Virus record (IMG/VR): IMGVR_UViG_3300042731_002827
Span: 1-21,098 of that record
Length of the DNA stretch: 21,098 bases
Reading direction: 5' to 3' (one strand)
From: a virus
Both the position numbers and the translations under genes were made by a program. The number at the start of each line of letters is the position of its first letter. Within the stretch, counting starts at the first letter, position 1. Shown here piece by piece: positions 2,955 to 17,010 of this stretch. Below the pieces are notes generated by a model. The model was given only the letters and a program-made list of their open reading frames with translations, was not told the DNA's origin and made no database searches.

Positions 2955-4928
2955 CTACGGGACTGAGGCTAAGACACCGAGAACAAAATCAATAAAGTCG
3001 TCATCGCTCCAGATCTTATGCTTGTTGAAGAACACCCCTTCCATCCCAGTCGACATCACCTCAGTTGCCCCTCCCAAATTCGGTTGCCATTTACCCGAGT
3101 ACTTCTCGGTGAACTTATCCTTGTATGCCCACTCTTTACCGTTACCGTAGAGGTCTATGTTAGCCGAACCCCACGACTCCCCCGCTCGCGTTGAGTAACC
3201 GGACCCTTTAGCAATTCGTCGTTGGACAAAAGCGTTCTCCAAAGCCTTAACGTGCTCAACAGTATCCTGGGTTCGATGCGTTAGTTCATGTAGAGCAACC
3301 GATGGGCGATCACTTGAGTGAATAGTAATATGTCCCTGTCCGCCTACAGAGCTATAACCCGCACGAACTTCTTTCCCAGTCTTATGTATAATTTTCGTCG
3401 ACGACTTAAGAGCACGTTCCCCAGTCTGTCGTCGAATCGGGTTGTTCATTACGGAGATCCAATCACTAGGTAAATACTTGGCAACATCCTGGATCTTGCT
3501 AACTCCCAGAGCATCCCCAAACAGAGCCAACTGCCCACCGAATCCTCTGATCTCAGAAAGTACTTCTAACACTGTATCTCGTAAGAGGGTGGGAGTGACT
3601 TTCTTTGCCGCTTGCTCAAAGTACTTAAGACTGCTTGTTGCAGAATTGAGTAGGGTTTCTGCTCTTCTTGCTTCCTGACTCAAAGCCCCGTAGTCAATCT
3701 TAGCTTGAGTCCAGTCCTTCAATCTCTGGTCACGTATTTTCGTCCACTTCTTTACAGCCTCAAGTTCTTGCTTGTTGGCGACCCCAAGTTTCACTTGCGC
3801 TCTTCGGCGGGCTTCCTTTCGGATTTGTGCCCCGATCTTACGAACCGCAACCTCGTTAGATCTGGCGGACTTATGTACCCATCCGTTCCGAATGAAAGGC
3901 GACGTTGTTCTCGATGCCAAGGGTACCTCTCCCCCAATCCACTCAGCAGCAATCTGCTGATTGATCTTCTCCGCAAAAGTCTTTGGCGGGACCTTACGAA
4001 TTGGTTGGGGCATCTTCTTCGTTGGGGCACCGGGCGGCATCTTTGGTTGAGGCGGTAAGACCTGCTCCGGGATATCGGTTTCTGTTGGAGTTGTATCAGG
4101 TTTCCGCGGTGCTACTTCTTCGTACGCAATCGTACATCGGCAGTTGATCACTTCCTCTGCCGGTCCCCCAGATCTGGGGTACATCAATCCGTTAGGGAAC
4201 GGTTCGTTGAACTTACGTTTCATCCGATGCTGTGCCCGATGCGAGTCCCGGACCCTGCCATCACTCGCCGTGATCCAGATCTTCATCACGTTCTTCTTAT
4301 CGAGCTTCGAATGCTTGATCGTTTCGTTGATGGTCAACGATGAGATCTTACCCACTTCAGTACGAGCAATTGTCTCAGGTCTCGACCGCGACCAATGCAG
4401 ATACGAATCACTGATCCGGTCCGTGATCTGATCAAGAGTTTCCCCCGCTGCGATCCCAGCAGTAATCTGGGTTTTGATCATCTTCATCGTCGTCTTGTTG
4501 ACTTGATCAGCCAGGTTAATCGCATAGGTCTGGAGGAACTTCTCTACCTCGGGAGCGAGCCCAGGAAACGTAAACGACATCGAGACCATAACATCGTTGG
4601 TAAACTTGGTGGCCGTCGGCTTAATCACAGCGTTGATGTTTGCTGCCCACTGTTCCTTATTCGCCTCATGGAATCTGCCGATCTTTGCTAAGACGTCTGC
4701 CGCTTCCAGAGTACCACCCCAAGTGGCAGCTTTAAAGTCACTCAAAGTCGAACCCCTGAGGATCCTAAGAACATGGCGACGCTCCGAAAGATACTCTCGA
4801 CGAAGGACTCTGATCAGGGCTTCTTCGAAACGACTAACCGCTTGATCCCAACGCCTCCACTCTCGATCAAACCGAGCAGCTTCAGATGCCTGGGCGATTA
4901 TAGGTACAATCAGGGGTTGAGATGCCAT
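2955..4928 (-). CDS. SPP1 gp7/Mu gpF-type minor head protein with C-terminal HExxH domain
   Basis: A 657-residue protein whose ATG at 4928 overlaps the portal stop as TAATG. Residues about 150-270 are the Mu-F head morphogenesis domain: IARTEVG (187-193), WITASDGRVRDSHRAQH (218-234), FPNGLMYP (244-251), and GGPAEEVINCRC (254-265). This family is a minor head component near the portal and is thought to enter the cell with the DNA in some phages. A Pro-rich linker (273-317) is followed by an Arg/Lys-rich helical region (350-445) and a C-terminal domain with HELTH at 547-551, a zinc-metallopeptidase signature. A candidate third ligand is E623 or E630 in GGATEVMSTGMEGVF. Polyvalent Mu-F proteins carrying toxin or peptidase domains are known. 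Peptidase activity here is inferred from the motif. The Mu-F call is very strong. Confidence 0.9.
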   Translation of the reverse strand: MASQPLIVPIIAQASEAARFDREWRRWDQAVSRFEEALIRVLRREYLSERRHVLRILRGSTLSDFKAATWGGTLEAADVLAKIGRFHEANKEQWAANINAVIKPTATKFTNDVMVSMSFTFPGLAPEVEKFLQTYAINLADQVNKTTMKMIKTQITAGIAAGETLDQITDRISDSYLHWSRSRPETIARTEVGKISSLTINETIKHSKLDKKNVMKIWITASDGRVRDSHRAQHRMKRKFNEPFPNGLMYPRSGGPAEEVINCRCTIAYEEVAPRKPDTTPTETDIPEQVLPPQPKMPPGAPTKKMPQPIRKVPPKTFAEKINQQIAAEWIGGEVPLASRTTSPFIRNGWVHKSARSNEVAVRKIGAQIRKEARRRAQVKLGVANKQELEAVKKWTKIRDQRLKDWTQAKIDYGALSQEARRAETLLNSATSSLKYFEQAAKKVTPTLLRDTVLEVLSEIRGFGGQLALFGDALGVSKIQDVAKYLPSDWISVMNNPIRRQTGERALKSSTKIIHKTGKEVRAGYSSVGGQGHITIHSSDRPSVALHELTHRTQDTVEHVKALENAFVQRRIAKGSGYSTRAGESWGSANIDLYGNGKEWAYKDKFTEKYSGKWQPNLGGATEVMSTGMEGVFFNKHKIWSDDDFIDFVLGVLASVP

Positions 4929-6439
4929 TATTCACGGGTCTCCCACCCCATATTCGACGTATAGGAGTTGTTTCGGCTCCGCCTAGCCCGATATGGTCGT
5001 CCAAAGATCATGCGAGCGCTCCTGCTCGAAATACTCAATGCGCGTGACGCTGCGATCAACCGCCCACCTAACCCTTCGTCTATACTCTGATCATCCGGAC
5101 CGATGATTGACTGCGTATCAAGATCGTCAATGAACGTCTGACCCATATCAGTTTTCGCCCACTCTTGGAGCGCGGTTAAAGTCATTTTACCGATCCCGTT
5201 AGGGAGTGGTGGTAAGTCAAGATCAGATCGCACTTCATCGATAGTTACGACATCGGTCTTGAGGTACTCCACATGCACCATTGCATCGCCCACATCGTCA
5301 GTGGGATCCAACCCGATCCAAAAGAACTCGAGTTGACCGATTAGTGGGTTACCCGTGATCTCTGCTATCCGGGGAATGATCCGAGTATTGATCCGTTTCT
5401 GTAGGAGTAGAGCTAGCGGTCTCCTCGCCTCATCAATACTTTGTGATCTGCCAACCATGGCCGTAGATCGATTGATGTCCCGCTCGATCCCAAAGTCCTG
5501 GGGCTTGAGATCAAACGAAAAGGCGATTGACCGCATAAGCATTTCCTGGTACCTGAGGTAAAGTCCGTCGTCCCCCGCAGGTTTGAGATTGAGCGTTGCT
5601 GGTTTTGATCCGGTGTTACCAAAGACTCTGGGGATTCCCTTTCCAACCATCTCTTGCTCAAAGAATGTCCGAAGGAGTTTTACCTGATCATCCGATGCGT
5701 CCTCACCCAGGTAGATCCAAATCGGTGGATAAGCATTTGACGCGATCTCACGTTGGTATGAAGTGACTCCCAACCACGCCTCCATGATATCGATTGACGA
5801 CTCAAGCTGCGAGACTCCAAAAGGTTTCCAGGTTCGCTTTCTCTGCATTACGTACTCGAGTTGAGAGTGGAGGAACTCTACCTCAACTTTCGACTCGATT
5901 ACCTGCGCCCATCGTGGTTGATTGGGATCGCCCCTCCAATCCTTATTTCGAGCGATAGTATAACCTGCGATAGGGTATAGTCCTAACCACGGGTTACCCA
6001 CATCTACTGGGTTCTCAACGTACTCCCAAACCCCCGCATCCCACTCAAGCATGTCTTCTGCTACCTGCCCGATGAAGGAACCAAAATCGTTGTCCTCCGG
6101 ATTGGGATTCTCGAGAACCAAACGCACGGTATCAATCGCCTCAGAGAAATCCTCAAGATCCAAATCCTCAATAACGTCCTGGTCTGGGCGTACCCCATAG
6201 TCTGACTGAGCGATCCCATTTCGGATCACCCGAATCGCTCTAGAAGGTATCGCTGACTCTGAGAACGCTTGAAGGTTCTTGAGTCGTCGTCGAGTCCGTC
6301 GTGATTCGTAGCTCCCCGTCGACGTCGATACTGGAACTATAGTCATCCCGCCCGTCGGTTTTGACTGACGTTCTTCGGCCTGGATGACAGGGGGAACCTC
6401 CAATGGAGCTAACCCATGACGTTGCAGAATTCCAATCAT
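4928..6439 (-). CDS. Phage portal protein
   Basis: The portal forms the dodecameric ring at one head vertex through which DNA enters and leaves. I use the ATG at 6439 (503 residues): it has AGGAAG seven bases upstream, whereas the longer frame from 6490 would start inside a 13-bp hairpin. Recognisable stretches are the helical segment SAIPSRAIRVIRNGIAQSDY near residue 62-81, EDMLEWDAGVWEYV, SYQREIASNAYPPIWIY, LYLRYQEMLMRSIAFSFDLKPQDFG, and DINRSTAMVGRSQS, typical of the crown, wing and stem region of HK97/SPP1-like portals. The C-terminus is basic and Ser/Arg-rich. The length is normal for the family. It is followed without a gap by the Mu-F gene, the standard arrangement, and preceded by a conspicuous hairpin. 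Confidence 0.88.
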   Translation of the reverse strand: MIGILQRHGLAPLEVPPVIQAEERQSKPTGGMTIVPVSTSTGSYESRRTRRRLKNLQAFSESAIPSRAIRVIRNGIAQSDYGVRPDQDVIEDLDLEDFSEAIDTVRLVLENPNPEDNDFGSFIGQVAEDMLEWDAGVWEYVENPVDVGNPWLGLYPIAGYTIARNKDWRGDPNQPRWAQVIESKVEVEFLHSQLEYVMQRKRTWKPFGVSQLESSIDIMEAWLGVTSYQREIASNAYPPIWIYLGEDASDDQVKLLRTFFEQEMVGKGIPRVFGNTGSKPATLNLKPAGDDGLYLRYQEMLMRSIAFSFDLKPQDFGIERDINRSTAMVGRSQSIDEARRPLALLLQKRINTRIIPRIAEITGNPLIGQLEFFWIGLDPTDDVGDAMVHVEYLKTDVVTIDEVRSDLDLPPLPNGIGKMTLTALQEWAKTDMGQTFIDDLDTQSIIGPDDQSIDEGLGGRLIAASRALSISSRSARMIFGRPYRARRSRNNSYTSNMGWETRE

Positions 6440-6450
6440 ACTATTTCTTC

Positions 6451-6505
6451 CTAAAGAAAGACGAGGGTAGAGGTGAGAAGGGAGTATCATCTCCTCTACC
6501 CTCGT
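6451..6505 (-). promoter_or_regulatory. 13-bp perfect stem-loop just upstream of the portal start
   Basis: Positions 6493-6505 and 6461-6473 form a perfect 13-bp inverted repeat (arm CCTCTACCCTCGT on the plus strand) with a 19-base loop. On the minus strand it is followed by a pyrimidine run (CTTTCTTT, 6460-6453) and then the portal ribosome binding site (6452-6447). It looks like an attenuator, a partial terminator or an RNA-processing or stability element that sets portal expression. The T-rich run is interrupted by a C, so termination would be weak. Confidence 0.55.
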
Positions 6506-8407: not shown

Positions 8408-8765
8408 ACTTATGCGGCGGCTCTTCTAGTCCATCAAGCCCGTGCATAGCAATACAATGCCGGGTAATTACCGCCAACTGCCTTGTTATCAGATCGACTT
8501 GTTTTGTTACCCCTACGGTATAATCCCGGTGAGCCCTTCGCCTCTCTTCTTCTCGGATGAGTCGCCGTTCGTGGTCATCAAGATGTTTGTAGTGATCGCT
8601 AACATGCCCGTTGATTTTCTGCAGGCGTCCCAGTATAACCTCGTGCCTCTGTTTAACATCAGCTTTGAGGTTATAGTAGACCACCCCAATCAACAATATT
8701 ATTGTAGATCCAAACCCACCCGTTATCCACATTAGTATAGTAGCAGGTGAATGCAATTCGCTCAT
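8406..8765 (-). CDS. Single-span membrane protein with cytoplasmic coiled coil
   Basis: A 119-residue protein whose ATG at 8765 overlaps the TerL stop (ATGA). Residues 8-31 (ATILMWITGGFGSTIILLIG region) form one membrane helix. The rest is highly charged, with a helical heptad stretch 32-75 (RHEVILGRLQKI, HLDDHERRLIREEERRR) and a second helix 85-106. The build (N-terminal anchor plus coiled coil) resembles XhlA-like holin accessory proteins or spanin-like components, but I cannot assign a family. Coupling to TerL is unusual for a lysis protein, so a role at the membrane during assembly or packaging is equally possible. Confidence 0.68.
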   Translation of the reverse strand: MSELHSPATILMWITGGFGSTIILLIGVVYYNLKADVKQRHEVILGRLQKINGHVSDHYKHLDDHERRLIREEERRRAHRDYTVGVTKQVDLITRQLAVITRHCIAMHGLDGLEEPPHK

Positions 8766-10315
8766 ATAGCAAAAGCTTCCTTCTTTGATTCAAACTGCTC
8801 GAGTACTCCCACAGTCGAGTCGGGTCCGTCATCGTGACTCCCGTAAGGAAACTCACTCCACTGCGAAAAGTAATGAGCGGGTAGTGATGCTTCAAACAAA
8901 GTCCGCCGCTTGATTATAGGTTCCGCATTGAGAATTCGTTGGACCTTATTCTTACTCTGGGATACTTGCTTGAGTGGGAGAGAAACGCCCCTCTCTTTCG
9001 CACGTCTCTTCAGGAACGGAACCATGATCGCAAACCCTCCGTTGTCTTCGTAGTAGAGTGTACGGATTGGGTACTCTTCCATGAGATCAAGCGCCGCCTC
9101 AATCTGCTGCTCAGCAGATGCCCGCTTCAAGTAAACCTTTAACACCCAGTAGTACCTGAGAGGATCCCCCGATTCTCTCTTGACTCGTCGAGTAGCCACA
9201 ACCGAAATGGCTGCATAGTCCCGCTCATTCGCCGCCCCAGATCCTTTCTCCTTTCCAGTAGCAGGATCCCAGTAGGCAATTACCTGATAACCTTTGAGCG
9301 TACGACCATTAAGTGAGAACCTCTTAAACTGTGCTGTATCGTAGACTATCTCCTCTGCACCGCGATCGTAATTGAGAAACTCGAGAGCGAATGAGCGCCC
9401 CTTGATTAGCCTCTCACGTTCGACCAATCTCTCCATCGGCCACTGATGTGGCCAGAGAGCAGAGGAGTCCTCTTTTGTGTTACCGATTGGAAAGTCCTCA
9501 TACTCTCCTTTCGGGATATTGATCGCCCGGTACAGCTTCCCATCCCAAAGTGGATCCTTGAGGTAGGTGGCGACCAATGACTCTTTGTGCATAAAGTTGC
9601 CCTCTACGTAGATGTCACAGTCATGCGAACCTAGGTTGAGGATCGTATTTCTAAACCGATGGATGAGTCGCTGCCGACGAAAAGCGGTCGCTACATCATC
9701 CTCGTCCTGCGGGTCATCGCAGACCATTACATCGGGTCTACGATGCTCGTCCTTTAGTCCTCTAAACTTCGAATGGATCGATCTGGCTTCAACCGCTGCC
9801 CCACTCAACAGTTTGACCTTATCATCAGTCCACTTTACAAACTGACCCTTGAAGTCAAGCTGAGGAGTCAAGTGGGGGAAGTCAGCCAATAGGGTATCGT
9901 TGTTTTCGATCTCGTTCTGCAGCCCCAAAAAGTGGGGAGCTAGCGAGTCAGTAGATGCCCCGAAGAGGACTATGTAGTACTTCAACTTATAGGCCAACCA
10001 CCAGAGTGGAGCAGCAATCAACATAATCGTCGATTTCCCATGCTCCCGTGGCTCGGCTCGTATGACTCGTTTCCCCGTCTTGGGATCTTGGATAACCTCG
10101 AATAGATCCCGGTGATGTTCTCCGAACGGAGCAGTAAAGTGATGACCTAAGTAGATCTCACAGAACCGCTCAATGGACTGTCTCCCCTCCGCTACCCGAT
10201 CCTTGTCCGACAGCTCGAGCCGCTCCCGTGCTTGACGCAGGGCGGACACCGCTGGGCTGGTCATCGAGTTGGATGAGTCCCCAGTCCCGTTCAATACGTC
10301 TGAGAGTCTTGCCAT
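8762..10315 (-). CDS. terL: Terminase large subunit (packaging ATPase and nuclease)
   Basis: A 517-residue protein of normal length for the family. Residues 89-96 (PREHGKST) form the Walker A-type loop, 195-202 (DVMVCDDP) the Walker B strand with its acidic pair, and 115-121 (IVLFGAS) a neighbouring ATPase-core strand. The C-terminal RNase-H-like nuclease has its acidic residues in AYWDPATG (D350), YYEDNGG (E423, D424) and SHDDGPDSTVG (D495, D496, D499). The enzyme cuts concatemeric DNA and pumps it into the prohead through the portal. The ATG at 10315 lies inside the 3' end of terS, so the genes overlap by 146 bases; a shorter start at 10264 exists but has no ribosome binding site. Its stop overlaps the next start. 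Identification is firm. Confidence 0.95.
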   Translation of the reverse strand: MARLSDVLNGTGDSSNSMTSPAVSALRQARERLELSDKDRVAEGRQSIERFCEIYLGHHFTAPFGEHHRDLFEVIQDPKTGKRVIRAEPREHGKSTIMLIAAPLWWLAYKLKYYIVLFGASTDSLAPHFLGLQNEIENNDTLLADFPHLTPQLDFKGQFVKWTDDKVKLLSGAAVEARSIHSKFRGLKDEHRRPDVMVCDDPQDEDDVATAFRRQRLIHRFRNTILNLGSHDCDIYVEGNFMHKESLVATYLKDPLWDGKLYRAINIPKGEYEDFPIGNTKEDSSALWPHQWPMERLVERERLIKGRSFALEFLNYDRGAEEIVYDTAQFKRFSLNGRTLKGYQVIAYWDPATGKEKGSGAANERDYAAISVVATRRVKRESGDPLRYYWVLKVYLKRASAEQQIEAALDLMEEYPIRTLYYEDNGGFAIMVPFLKRRAKERGVSLPLKQVSQSKNKVQRILNAEPIIKRRTLFEASLPAHYFSQWSEFPYGSHDDGPDSTVGVLEQFESKKEAFAI

Positions 10316-10898
10316 CCTTCACGTACCTTGCTACAGTTAACGCCATTTGCTCCATCAACCGTTTGAAAGTTCTCATGGTGATGGATCCTTGGTTACGAAT
10401 ATCGTGCACGAGTTTGACGACCCGAGTCGCCTCCCTTATCAACGAAACAGCATGGCTGATGTCATACACCCTTGTGGGCTTTCGTGCCTTCTCGGGTTCC
10501 TTAGAGTTCTGCCATGACTTATTCCAGTTGATGAGAGCTTCGGTATACTCATCATACCGATTCACAAAGTCTATTGCCATTGCTCTGATCAGGTACAAAT
10601 CCTCTACCAGGTTCAAAGGGTCCTCACCCTTCTCTTTCAACTCATCGATCAGGTCAGTGACTCTCCGCCTTTTGACTGCTGAGTACATCCCGTGCTTGAT
10701 CGCTTTGGTGCCCCCATGAAACTTACATCTCCCCTGACCCAGGTGATCAGTTGCTTGCCCCGCTTTAGCCATACACGGTTTCCCTGACTTCTTCGGCGCT
10801 CCGCAGACGAGGTATCCACGAGTCGGGTGTCGCCCGTCTTTTGTCGGCTCATACGGGGACGGGGGTGTCCCGGTTTTGTATTTCTTTTTCTCACTCAT
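10170..10898 (-). CDS. terS: Putative terminase small subunit with Cys/HGG zinc-like motif
   Basis: A 242-residue protein. Residues 32-63 carry C32, C42, C58 and H61 in the pattern CGAPKKSGKPC...GRCKFHGG, followed by HGMYS, a motif known from a group of phage small-terminase-like and HNH-neighbouring proteins. Residues 75-200 are helical, with coiled-coil character (DLIDELKEKG, RTFKRLMEQMALTVARYV), suiting an oligomeric DNA-recognition subunit. The last about 35 residues are low-complexity (Gly, Ser, Ala) and are encoded in DNA that also encodes the TerL N-terminus. Position directly before terL is the main argument. The start overlaps the previous gene as ATGA. TerS is the likely but not certain function. 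Confidence 0.72.
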   Translation of the reverse strand: MSEKKKYKTGTPPSPYEPTKDGRHPTRGYLVCGAPKKSGKPCMAKAGQATDHLGQGRCKFHGGTKAIKHGMYSAVKRRRVTDLIDELKEKGEDPLNLVEDLYLIRAMAIDFVNRYDEYTEALINWNKSWQNSKEPEKARKPTRVYDISHAVSLIREATRVVKLVHDIRNQGSITMRTFKRLMEQMALTVARYVKDGKTLRRIERDWGLIQLDDQPSGVRPASSTGAARAVGQGSGSGGETVH

Positions 10899-12853: not shown

Positions 12854-13048
12854 CTACAACTCAACCCGTCGGACCCCAAACTTCTTGACCTTTGGCAATT
12901 TCTTCTTGGGCTTATCCGGCTTAGGTTTCTTAGACGACTCTGATCGAGAACCCCTCAACAGATGGTAAAGCTTGATCAGTCGAGAACGGAACCGGGACCA
13001 TAACCGGCCCAAGGTCGTCCTCGGCATCTTGGTGGACGGCATAAGCAT
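12854..13048 (-). CDS. Small highly basic Lys/Pro-tailed protein, overprinted on the cohesin gene
   Basis: A 64-residue frame whose first 40 codons overlap the 3' end of the cohesin-like gene in another frame. The ATG at 13048 follows AGGAACGAGGT, a fair ribosome binding site; ATG 13042 is also possible. The N-terminal half is Arg-rich and could be helical (RLWSRFRSRLIKLYHLLRG). The tail is Lys/Pro-rich (KKPKPDKPKKKLPKVKK). Such proteins often bind nucleic acids or acidic surfaces. The open region past the cohesin stop and the start signal favour a real gene, but overprinting keeps confidence moderate. Confidence 0.48.
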   Translation of the reverse strand: MLMPSTKMPRTTLGRLWSRFRSRLIKLYHLLRGSRSESSKKPKPDKPKKKLPKVKKFGVRRVEL

Positions 13049-13613
13049 ACCTCGTTCCTACATTCGATGGCACTTCAAACTGAGGTGACACCACTTTCTG
13101 AGGATCTTGAGGATCAACCGTCCATGGATAAGTGGCAACAGCTACCTCAGCAAAAGTCCCATCGTTGGGGTCGACTGACTCTCCAACAAACACTAGAGTT
13201 CTCACCACACCAAAGCTCGCAGGCGGTGGTGTCCAAACCGCTTCGTAGATCACAGTAGTCTCTCCTACTAAAATCTCCCCGTCGGTAGTCTCCGGAAAGA
13301 AGTCCTCTGGTCCCTCAGTTCCCTGCCGGCTACCGACGACATTTTGTAGAGCGAGAGTTGAGGGTCCATTTACTTTGAAGGTTATCTCTAAAAGTGTCCC
13401 AAGAGGGATAAGGGTAGCTTGACTATAAACCCCAGAAAGCACCCCAGGATCATTAACACTCGCCCATCCCCGAGAAACACTCACGTACTCGAGAGCTACC
13501 GGATCAAACCTCAACTCAAACGAGAGTCCAAAAACATGTTCGTCGGTCAACAAACGCACAGGCACTTCCTGCCCAGTGGCTTGACCGAGTAACAAAGTTT
13601 CAAGGGTAATCAC
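12930..13613 (-). CDS. Cohesin-like domain protein
   Basis: I place the start at GTG 13613: it overlaps the dockerin gene's stop as GTGA and has GAGG seven bases upstream; a TTG six bases earlier is worse. The product is 227 residues. Residues about 5-116 follow the cohesin beta-sandwich pattern: VPVRLL, then FGLSFELRFDPVALEYVSVS (28-47), a loop with GVLSG (57-61), LGTLLEITFKVNG (71-83), STLALQNVVG (85-94) and a last strand GEILVG. Cohesins bind dockerins in cellulosomes and related extracellular assemblies. Residues 117-227 look like a second beta domain of Fn3 type. There is no signal peptide. Domain identity rests on pattern; a generic carbohydrate-binding-like sandwich is the alternative. 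Its coupling to a dockerin gene strengthens the cohesin call. Confidence 0.68.
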   Translation of the reverse strand: MITLETLLLGQATGQEVPVRLLTDEHVFGLSFELRFDPVALEYVSVSRGWASVNDPGVLSGVYSQATLIPLGTLLEITFKVNGPSTLALQNVVGSRQGTEGPEDFFPETTDGEILVGETTVIYEAVWTPPPASFGVVRTLVFVGESVDPNDGTFAEVAVATYPWTVDPQDPQKVVSPQFEVPSNVGTRYAYAVHQDAEDDLGPVMVPVPFSTDQALPSVEGFSIRVV

Positions 13614-14080
13614 TGGCAATCCTCAAGCGAGTAAATCCCCGCAATGTATTGATGGACTAGAGTTAGATCAGTCACCGTTACGTTCCCATCTCCATTGGTG
13701 TCTGCTGCTTCCAACTCGTAGCCTGTTAAGAGATTGATACCTACTATATGCTGCGCGATCAAAACTGCGTCAGTCACAGTCCTTTGATTATCTGCGTTTG
13801 CATCACCCCGGCAGATGAACCGATAGGGCACTTCGTTTGAGAACCCCGACTCAAGATCCGCGGTGTTGACTGCGGTGCAGACGTAGTAATATTGATCACC
13901 GGGCACAATCGTCTGATCATCGTAAGTAGTCGGTGCGATCAAGTCTTGATTCAACCGAACGTATCCAGACCCACTCTGGTGAGAGCGGTACATATTGTAT
14001 CCGGCAACATCATCCTCTGGTGGGTTGGGGTCCCACTCTAACGTGACCCCTAACTGCAAGAGAATAAGTAGAGCTAACAC
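13610..14080 (-). CDS. Fn3-dockerin protein with hydrophobic N-terminus
   Basis: A 156-residue protein starting at GTG 14080, eight bases after AAGGAG. Residues 1-12 are hydrophobic (MLALLILLQLGV), perhaps a minimal signal peptide or anchor, although no basic n-region is present. Residues about 11-86 are an Fn3 domain (VTLEWDPNPPEDDVAGYNMY, YYYVCTAVNTADLESGFSNEV). Residues 91-153 are a type I dockerin: two EF-hand-like loops, D93-x-N95-x-D97...D104 and D127-x-N129-x-D131...D138, each followed by a helix (AVLIAQHIVG; LTLVHQYIAG). C90 and C155 flank it and could form a disulphide. Dockerins fold with calcium and bind cohesins; the next gene encodes a cohesin-like protein. The dockerin call is strong. 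Confidence 0.85.
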   Translation of the reverse strand: MLALLILLQLGVTLEWDPNPPEDDVAGYNMYRSHQSGSGYVRLNQDLIAPTTYDDQTIVPGDQYYYVCTAVNTADLESGFSNEVPYRFICRGDANADNQRTVTDAVLIAQHIVGINLLTGYELEAADTNGDGNVTVTDLTLVHQYIAGIYSLEDCQ

Positions 14081-14092
14081 TCTTTCTACTCC

Positions 14093-14443
14093 TTAACCCA
14101 GGTTCATTACTCCCAGAAGCATGAACGCCGATACGACACACCCGATAATCCAACTCAAGATATCACTGAGTCCTTTCTTCAGGGTCTGCCCTTGGGACAT
14201 ATTGTAAATCTCCCAGATACCTACGACTACCAGAACAATCAATCCCGCAACGACATGGCGCATAATCCCCTGCTGCCCAAGAGCAACGCTGAAGAATAGT
14301 GCCCAGGTATAAACGAACGTTGACGAAGTCAGATGCAGGAGTGCCCGTTCGGTATTATGAACATCTTCTTGGTTCTTTACGAACCAAAGTTTCCTGATCA
14401 ATTTCACCAGTAAAGTTTCGACTTGACGGTTGGTCATTTTCAT
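14093..14443 (-). CDS. Membrane protein with three predicted transmembrane segments
   Basis: A 116-residue protein. AGGGAG lies directly before the ATG at 14443 and six bases before the in-frame ATG at 14437, so the latter may be the true start. After a basic N-terminal helix (VKLIRKLWFVKNQ) come hydrophobic segments at about 40-57 (SSTFVYTWALFFSVALG), 62-80 (HVVAGLIVLVVVGIWEIY) and 92-114 (LSDILSWIIGCVVSAFMLLG). No family is recognised; a holin or a superinfection-exclusion type membrane protein are both possible. Its stop lies directly before the dockerin gene's ribosome binding site, so the two are co-translated. Confidence 0.7.
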   Translation of the reverse strand: MKMTNRQVETLLVKLIRKLWFVKNQEDVHNTERALLHLTSSTFVYTWALFFSVALGQQGIMRHVVAGLIVLVVVGIWEIYNMSQGQTLKKGLSDILSWIIGCVVSAFMLLGVMNLG

Positions 14444-16671: not shown

Positions 16672-17010
16672 TTATTTGGTGATGTCCATCGTGATGACAA
16701 ATTCGTCTTTCAAGATGGTTCTTATATCTCCGGTATCGGTGGTCATCTGCACATCATAAAAGTAGGTCGCGGGCTCTTGATCAGAGTGGGTACTCGTAAC
16801 CGGAAATCCAACTTTCCCAGTAGTCGGGTCTCCGTCCAAAACCCCAGCCACTTGAAAGAGCTGATTGCCCGCGTCGTCGGGGTCCGATGACGGGTCAACT
16901 GATAGTAAGAAATTGTAACCCGTAATGTCAATCGGGTCGCCGGACGACCGGTACTTTATCGTCAGGAGAATCGTGTACTGGTCACCCCTGTAAAACACTA
17001 TCTTTGGCAT
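16672..17010 (-). CDS. Ig-like/BppU-type virion protein
   Basis: A 112-residue beta protein with ATG at 17010. The pattern YRGDQYTILLTIKYRSSGDP, DITGYNFLLSV, GKVGFPVTSTHS, ATYFYDVQMTTDTGDIRTIL and a final DEFVITMDIT matches the N-terminal fold of baseplate upper proteins (BppU) and many tail-associated proteins: a seven-stranded domain, often an adaptor joining fibres to the tail. It would act in the virion. No catalytic residues are seen. Upstream are the acidic small protein and the beta-helix protein, supporting a receptor-binding apparatus. Confidence 0.72.
   Translation of the reverse strand: MPKIVFYRGDQYTILLTIKYRSSGDPIDITGYNFLLSVDPSSDPDDAGNQLFQVAGVLDGDPTTGKVGFPVTSTHSDQEPATYFYDVQMTTDTGDIRTILKDEFVITMDITK

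What the first reader, a model, noticed from the sequence alone, without database searches (positions are those of the whole stretch)
12930..14080. Phage-encoded, translationally coupled dockerin and cohesin-like proteins
Two adjacent genes in a phage late operon encode the halves of a known high-affinity pair. The first (13610-14080) is Fn3 plus a type I dockerin with both calcium loops intact (D93/N95/D97/D104 and D127/N129/D131/D138). The second (12930-13613) has a cohesin-like sandwich (FGLSFELRFDPVALEYVSVS and following strands). They overlap as GTGA, suggesting balanced synthesis. Established knowledge: cohesin and dockerin assemble cellulosomes and related surface complexes. I infer a plug-and-socket device for virion decoration, host-surface tethering, or docking onto a host cellulosome-like scaffold. 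The dockerin protein has a hydrophobic N-terminus and the cohesin protein has none, so they may meet only at lysis or on the virion.
Basis: partly seen in the sequence, partly recalled or inferred. Interest (0 to 1): 0.86.

Follow-up and report, generated by a model that had tools for sequence, protein, structure and literature searches.

The report
Phage-borne dockerin and cohesin-like gene pair
An uncultivated phage carries, in two overlapping genes, a calcium-loop "plug" domain (dockerin) and a probable matching "socket" domain (cohesin) that bacteria use to snap surface proteins together; whether these two bind is untested, and no such neighbouring pair was found in any other phage searched.

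Summary
On the minus strand, 14080-13610 (GTG start) encodes Fn3 plus a type I dockerin (PF00404, 42.4 bits, E 8e-11) with both calcium loops intact. Its stop overlaps the next start (GTGA), and 13613-12930 encodes an N-terminal cohesin-like domain. That domain is just under Pfam's cut-off (23.1 v 24.1 bits, E 9e-5). AlphaFold with five cohesins as alignment gives pLDDT 82.6 and the 38 best PDB matches are cohesins; the alignment biases that test.

Two things change the picture. First, the Fn3 half belongs to a widespread phage family (17 loci found, 14 distinct), nearly all with a Sec-type leader and several beside holin-, spanin- or endolysin-like genes; the dockerin is a C-terminal addition seen only here. 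Second, phage dockerins are not unprecedented: endolysins on other viral contigs carry them. The neighbouring cohesin-like gene is what is new: no kin phage or Fn3 relative searched has either domain.

Most likely reading: a cognate, calcium-dependent two-protein clip on late-phase Fn3 proteins. Binding, virion location and compartment are inference. New variant of a known kind.

The parts
13610..14080 (-). Gene 1: hydrophobic leader, Fn3 domain, type I dockerin (156 aa, GTG start, AGGAG 8 nt upstream)
13643..13807 (-). Dockerin_1 domain, duplicated calcium-loop/helix repeats, about aa 92-146
   Evidence: Pfam PF00404 42.4 bits; six-frame search 44.4 bits, E 4e-13
13820..14050 (-). Fn3 domain of the phage late-gene Fn3 family, about aa 11-87
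   Evidence: HMM of phage homologues E 1e-18; 48-49% identity to kin phage G001
14048..14080 (-). Short hydrophobic leader MLALLILLQLG, no positive n-region; signal peptide uncertain
   Evidence: sequence; homologues in other phages carry Sec-type leaders
12930..13613 (-). Gene 2: N-terminal cohesin-like domain plus an unassigned beta-rich C-terminal half (227 aa, GTG start, GAGG 7 nt upstream, no leader)
13260..13613 (-). Cohesin-like domain, aa 1-118
   Evidence: Pfam 23.1 bits, E 9e-5; AF2 pLDDT 82.6, pTM 0.74; Foldseek top hits cohesins, best E 2.8e-8
13610..13613 (-). GTGA overlap of stop and start codons (translational coupling inferred)
14093..14443 (-). Small membrane protein directly upstream; relatives lie 0.3-0.8 kb upstream of the Fn3 gene in L068 and L066, and next to TerL in G022

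Best explanation
The two genes encode a cognate, calcium-dependent clip. Gene 1 is a member of a common phage family of late, leader-bearing Fn3 proteins that has gained a C-terminal type I dockerin; gene 2, made from the overlapping start, supplies a cohesin-like socket on a second beta-rich protein. Steps shown: both genes, both calcium loops, the overlap with Shine-Dalgarno-like sites, membership of the Fn3 half in a phage family. Supported by model: the cohesin fold. Steps inferred: the two bind each other; binding waits for millimolar calcium, so the halves join outside the cytosol or at lysis (gene 1 has a weak leader, gene 2 none); the joined Fn3-dockerin:cohesin-X chain tethers something at the host envelope or on released virions, in the place where kin phages use longer multi-Fn3 chains or coupled beta-rich neighbours.
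For: Dockerin certain. Cohesin by sequence and fold; even the unaided low-confidence model had a cohesin as its most probable match (0.92). Genes overlap and each has a ribosome-binding-like site. Phage setting certain: TerL, portal, MuF, TerS-like. Base composition equals the rest of the genome. Kin G001 has the same layout: an Fn3 gene with ATGA overlap into a small gene, with extra Fn3 domains where this phage has the dockerin. Established knowledge, also summarised in PMC9012536: cohesin-dockerin pairs occur outside cellulosomes, and archaeal ones bind.
Against: No binding data. The pair is not conserved in any relative searched, so no co-evolution test is possible. Cohesin is below the Pfam cut-off, and the good model used cohesins as its alignment. 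No evidence that either protein is in the virion. The leader of gene 1 is short and uncharged, so export is doubtful.
Confidence: 0.5

Rival explanations
1. Host-facing use: the dockerin docks onto cohesins on the host surface and the cohesin-like protein captures host dockerin proteins; the two need not bind each other.
For: Other phage contigs carry dockerins on cell-wall lysins: GH25-dockerin-LysM, GH25-dockerin, amidase-dockerin, best explained as docking to host surface cohesins (inference).
Against: Those contigs have no cohesin over the cut-off; carrying both halves side by side is not needed for host docking. Host unknown.
Confidence: 0.2
2. The domains are generic modules of two late surface proteins: the cohesin-like domain is only a jelly-roll relative of cohesin and of carbohydrate-binding modules, and there is no plug-and-socket function.
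For: Sub-cut-off Pfam score; the weak unaided model also matched cellulose- and chitin-binding domains; cohesin-like folds occur in other viral proteins with no dockerin known to me (BFVD A0A7T8ERM8, A0A6J5M064).
Against: It would put a cohesin-like domain next to a true dockerin by accident.
Confidence: 0.18
3. One polypeptide split in two: a sequencing error or programmed frameshift divides an Fn3-dockerin-cohesin-X protein.
For: Gene 2 begins at the first strand of the cohesin domain, has no leader, and runs on directly from the dockerin's end.
Against: Both starts have Shine-Dalgarno-like sites; 4-base overlaps are ordinary and also join the Fn3 gene to its neighbour in G001 and L075.
Confidence: 0.08
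4. Recently captured cellular DNA or an assembly artefact, without function for the phage.
For: No kin phage searched has either domain.
Against: The Fn3 half is homologous to genes of kin phages including the leader region; GC and GC3 match the phage; flanked on both sides by phage genes.
Confidence: 0.04

Closest known systems
Non-cellulosomal cohesin-dockerin proteins of archaea and bacteria (Archaeoglobus fulgidus; ANME archaea)
   Same: Cohesin and dockerin outside any cellulosome; the A. fulgidus cohesin 2xdh is a top structural match (E 4e-7)
   Different: Cellular, not viral; here one cohesin-like domain and one dockerin on separate overlapping phage genes
Clostridium perfringens GH84C cohesin-Fn3 double module (2w1n)
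   Same: Single cohesin followed by another domain; structural match E 1.2e-5
   Different: Part of a secreted enzyme; here no enzyme, and the C-terminal half of gene 2 is not shown to be Fn3
Phage endolysins with a dockerin (L022, L023, L028, L029)
   Same: Phage-encoded PF00404 dockerins over the Pfam cut-off
   Different: Dockerin on a cell-wall hydrolase with no cohesin gene found; here on a non-enzymatic Fn3 protein with a cohesin-like neighbour
Late-gene phage Fn3 proteins with Sec-type leader (L062-L078, G001, G023)
   Same: Homologous Fn3 domain, similar neighbours
   Different: None of the others has a dockerin or a cohesin
Vibrio phage VvAW1 gp40 (PMC3558961)
   Same: Earlier report of a dockerin type I similarity in a phage
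   Different: Only a BLAST remark in the paper, no cohesin mentioned

Membership tests
Dockerin type I (PF00404) | Pfam gathering score reached | tested here: met
   42.4 v 22.9 bits
Dockerin type I (PF00404) | Two calcium-binding loop-helix repeats with D1, N3, D5, D12 | tested here: met
   residues 93/95/97/104 and 127/129/131/138
Dockerin type I (PF00404) | Calcium-dependent binding to a cohesin | not testable with these tools
   needs protein
Cohesin (PF00963) | Pfam gathering score reached | tested here: not met
   23.1 bits (domain) v 24.1, so called cohesin-like; E 9e-5 is nonetheless significant
Cohesin (PF00963) | Jelly-roll cohesin fold | tested here: met
   AF2 pLDDT 82.6 with cohesin alignment, 38 best PDB matches cohesins, TMq up to 0.81; biased by the alignment, the unaided model was poor
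Cohesin (PF00963) | Binds a dockerin | not testable with these tools
   needs protein
Cellulosome / scaffoldin system | Several cohesins in one scaffoldin, dockerin-bearing enzymes, carbohydrate-binding modules | tested here: not met
   one cohesin-like domain, one dockerin, no enzyme or CBM found on either protein
Phage late-gene Fn3 protein family | Homologous Fn3 domain | tested here: met
   HMM E 1e-18; matches in G001 and G023
Phage late-gene Fn3 protein family | N-terminal Sec-type leader | tested here: inconclusive
   hydrophobic but short and uncharged; no signal-peptide predictor on hand
Phage late-gene Fn3 protein family | Located beside membrane/lysis-type genes | tested here: met
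   membrane gene 14093-14443 has relatives upstream of the Fn3 gene in L066 and L068

The most novel reading that the evidence does not exclude
A virus uses its own cohesin-dockerin pair as a calcium-triggered self-assembly clip: two halves made from overlapping genes, kept apart in the low-calcium cytosol, and joined at lysis to decorate virions or tether them to envelope debris or neighbouring cells.
Probability: 0.25. Interest if true: 0.8.

Novelty: new variant of a known kind. Interest (0 to 1): 0.55.

Why it matters
Cohesin-dockerin is among the strongest known non-covalent protein pairs and the basis of cellulosomes. A phage that carries both halves would show that the system moves on viruses and is used without any enzyme, and would offer a small natural pair that is easy to test. 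It also gives a first clue to a widespread, unexplained phage gene family of leader-bearing Fn3 proteins: one member appears to have been turned into a docking device.

Tried and rejected
Single-protein scans for relatives of gene 2 in viral and genome contigs, phages and plasmids found nothing. TerL in genome contigs gave no prophage and hence no host. Dockerin hits in GenBank 'Bacteriophage sp.' scaffolds (MT83xxxx) were set aside: the records are unverified and, judged by eye from their translations, carry ordinary bacterial genes. L019 and L020, though in IMG/VR, also look bacterial. Fn3 nature of the C-terminal half of gene 2, suggested by its PSVEGFSIRVV ending, was tested and not supported (within shuffles). 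A home-made narrow cohesin HMM was uninformative, as was hhalign with a single sequence. AF2 of the whole gene 2 product without alignment was poor. No promoter, Rfam or tRNA feature bears on the pair. The complex could not be modelled with the tools at hand.

Full report
What is there. The window is a 21,098-base viral record whose recognisable genes all lie on the minus strand. It is a genuine phage segment: terminase large subunit at 8762-10315, portal at 4928-6490, Mu F-like protein at 2955-4928, a terminase small subunit-like gene at 10170-10898 and a BppU_N-like gene at 16672-17010 (PHROG 1084, E 1.5e-13; weak Pfam match). Gene 1 (14080-13610) starts with GTG after AGGAG and ends in TGA; gene 2 (13613-12930) starts with GTG after GAGG; they share GTGA.

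Gene 1. Nearest solved relatives by sequence include the dockerins of a serine protease (8x39) and of cellulosomal proteins. The two repeats match at 12 of 24 positions by my count, including T-V-T-D up to loop position 12 and the Q at position 18; from general knowledge such symmetry would allow binding in two orientations.

Gene 2. Pfam gives cohesin and nothing else credible (21.4 bits whole, 23.1 bits for the first 118 residues; cut-off 24.1). Because cohesin was the named hypothesis, E 9e-5 over 24,736 models means P of about 4e-9 for that family. The unaided AlphaFold model was poor (47.1), yet two cohesins were among its few high-probability matches (0.92 and 0.82, all with E above 0.2). 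With five cohesins of L019 as alignment, the domain folds at pLDDT 82.6, pTM 0.74, and the 38 best PDB matches are cohesins, best E 2.8e-8, with A. fulgidus 2xdh and the C. perfringens cohesin-Fn3 construct 2w1n among them. This is a consistency test rather than an independent one, since the alignment was cohesin. The C-terminal half is unassigned. I therefore write 'cohesin-like'.

Relatives. Phages related by TerL (47-51% identity for the nearest) or portal (about 40-45%) were fetched. None has a dockerin; those tested have no cohesin. But the Fn3 half of gene 1 has homologues in two of them: G001, 48-49% including the hydrophobic leader, and G023, about 40%. A scan with this Fn3 found 17 viral loci, 14 of them distinct, one being G001 itself. 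Read one by one, nearly all encode an Fn3 protein behind an evident Sec-type leader (judged by eye) with variable C-terminal additions, among them further Fn3 domains; several come in tandem (L065, L070, L075), and L075 and G001 show a four-base overlap with the next gene. Neighbours include a lysozyme and weakly Rz-like genes in G001. The membrane gene just upstream of gene 1 has relatives upstream of the Fn3 gene in L066 and L068. None of the 16 other records has a dockerin or cohesin. So the dockerin is a lineage-specific C-terminal addition to an existing phage protein, and gene 2 is new to the clade as far as seen.

Other phage dockerins. A dockerin scan of IMG/VR gave 13 loci. Of these, L022, L023 and L029 (GH25) and L028 (amidase) carry over-threshold dockerins on cell-wall lysins, and for L022, L023 and L028 the neighbouring genes look like phage structural genes; none of these has a cohesin over the cut-off. 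The literature library held one remark on a phage dockerin (VvAW1, PMC3558961), and a search for 'cohesin domain' with 'phage genome' returned only an ANME paper. In BFVD, two viral proteins match the cohesin model with E below 0.001, so cohesin-like folds in viruses are rare rather than absent.

How it works, and how sure. Shown: the genes, loops, overlap, phage setting and Fn3 kinship. Supported by model: the cohesin fold. Inferred: that the two bind (my estimate 0.6-0.65), that calcium outside the cytosol triggers it, and that the joined chain serves at the envelope or on released virions (0.25-0.35). The overall confidence of 0.5 refers to the cognate clip.

Limits. Collections are fragmentary; absence from them is weak evidence. 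No host was found. No metagenome scan was allowed. Leaders were judged by eye. The complex was not modelled.

Noticed in passing
L021 (IMGVR_UViG_3300037454_000603), 9512-10250: A CHAP-like lysin frame runs on into a dockerin repeat pair through in-frame TAG codons at 9845 and 10103, suggesting TAG recoding in this 179 kb phage; a TGA at 10196 may be the true end.
   Followed up: partly
L062-L078, L056, L057: Widespread, seemingly undescribed phage family of leader-bearing Fn3 proteins near membrane and lysis-type genes, often in tandem, with variable C-terminal domains.
   Followed up: partly
window 12854-13048, minus strand: A 64-codon frame overlapping the end of gene 2 ends in a lysine-rich tail (SKKPKPDKPKKKLPKVKKFGVRRVEL).
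   Followed up: no
L026, L027: A phage structural-looking protein (peptidase S74 found by Pfam in L027; L026 is cut short) has one dockerin-like calcium repeat (AADINGDGKVNISD) in its N-terminal part.
   Followed up: no
L030 9983-10327, L031 9366-9710: A 115-aa membrane protein has a single EF-hand-like loop (AADLNGDGHITKVE) before its membrane segments; possibly a calcium-linked holin-like protein.
   Followed up: no
L017 578-4229 (GenBank MT839502, probably bacterial): A dockerin protein is followed by a cohesin-bearing gene: the same side-by-side arrangement in what looks like a bacterial chromosome fragment.
   Followed up: partly
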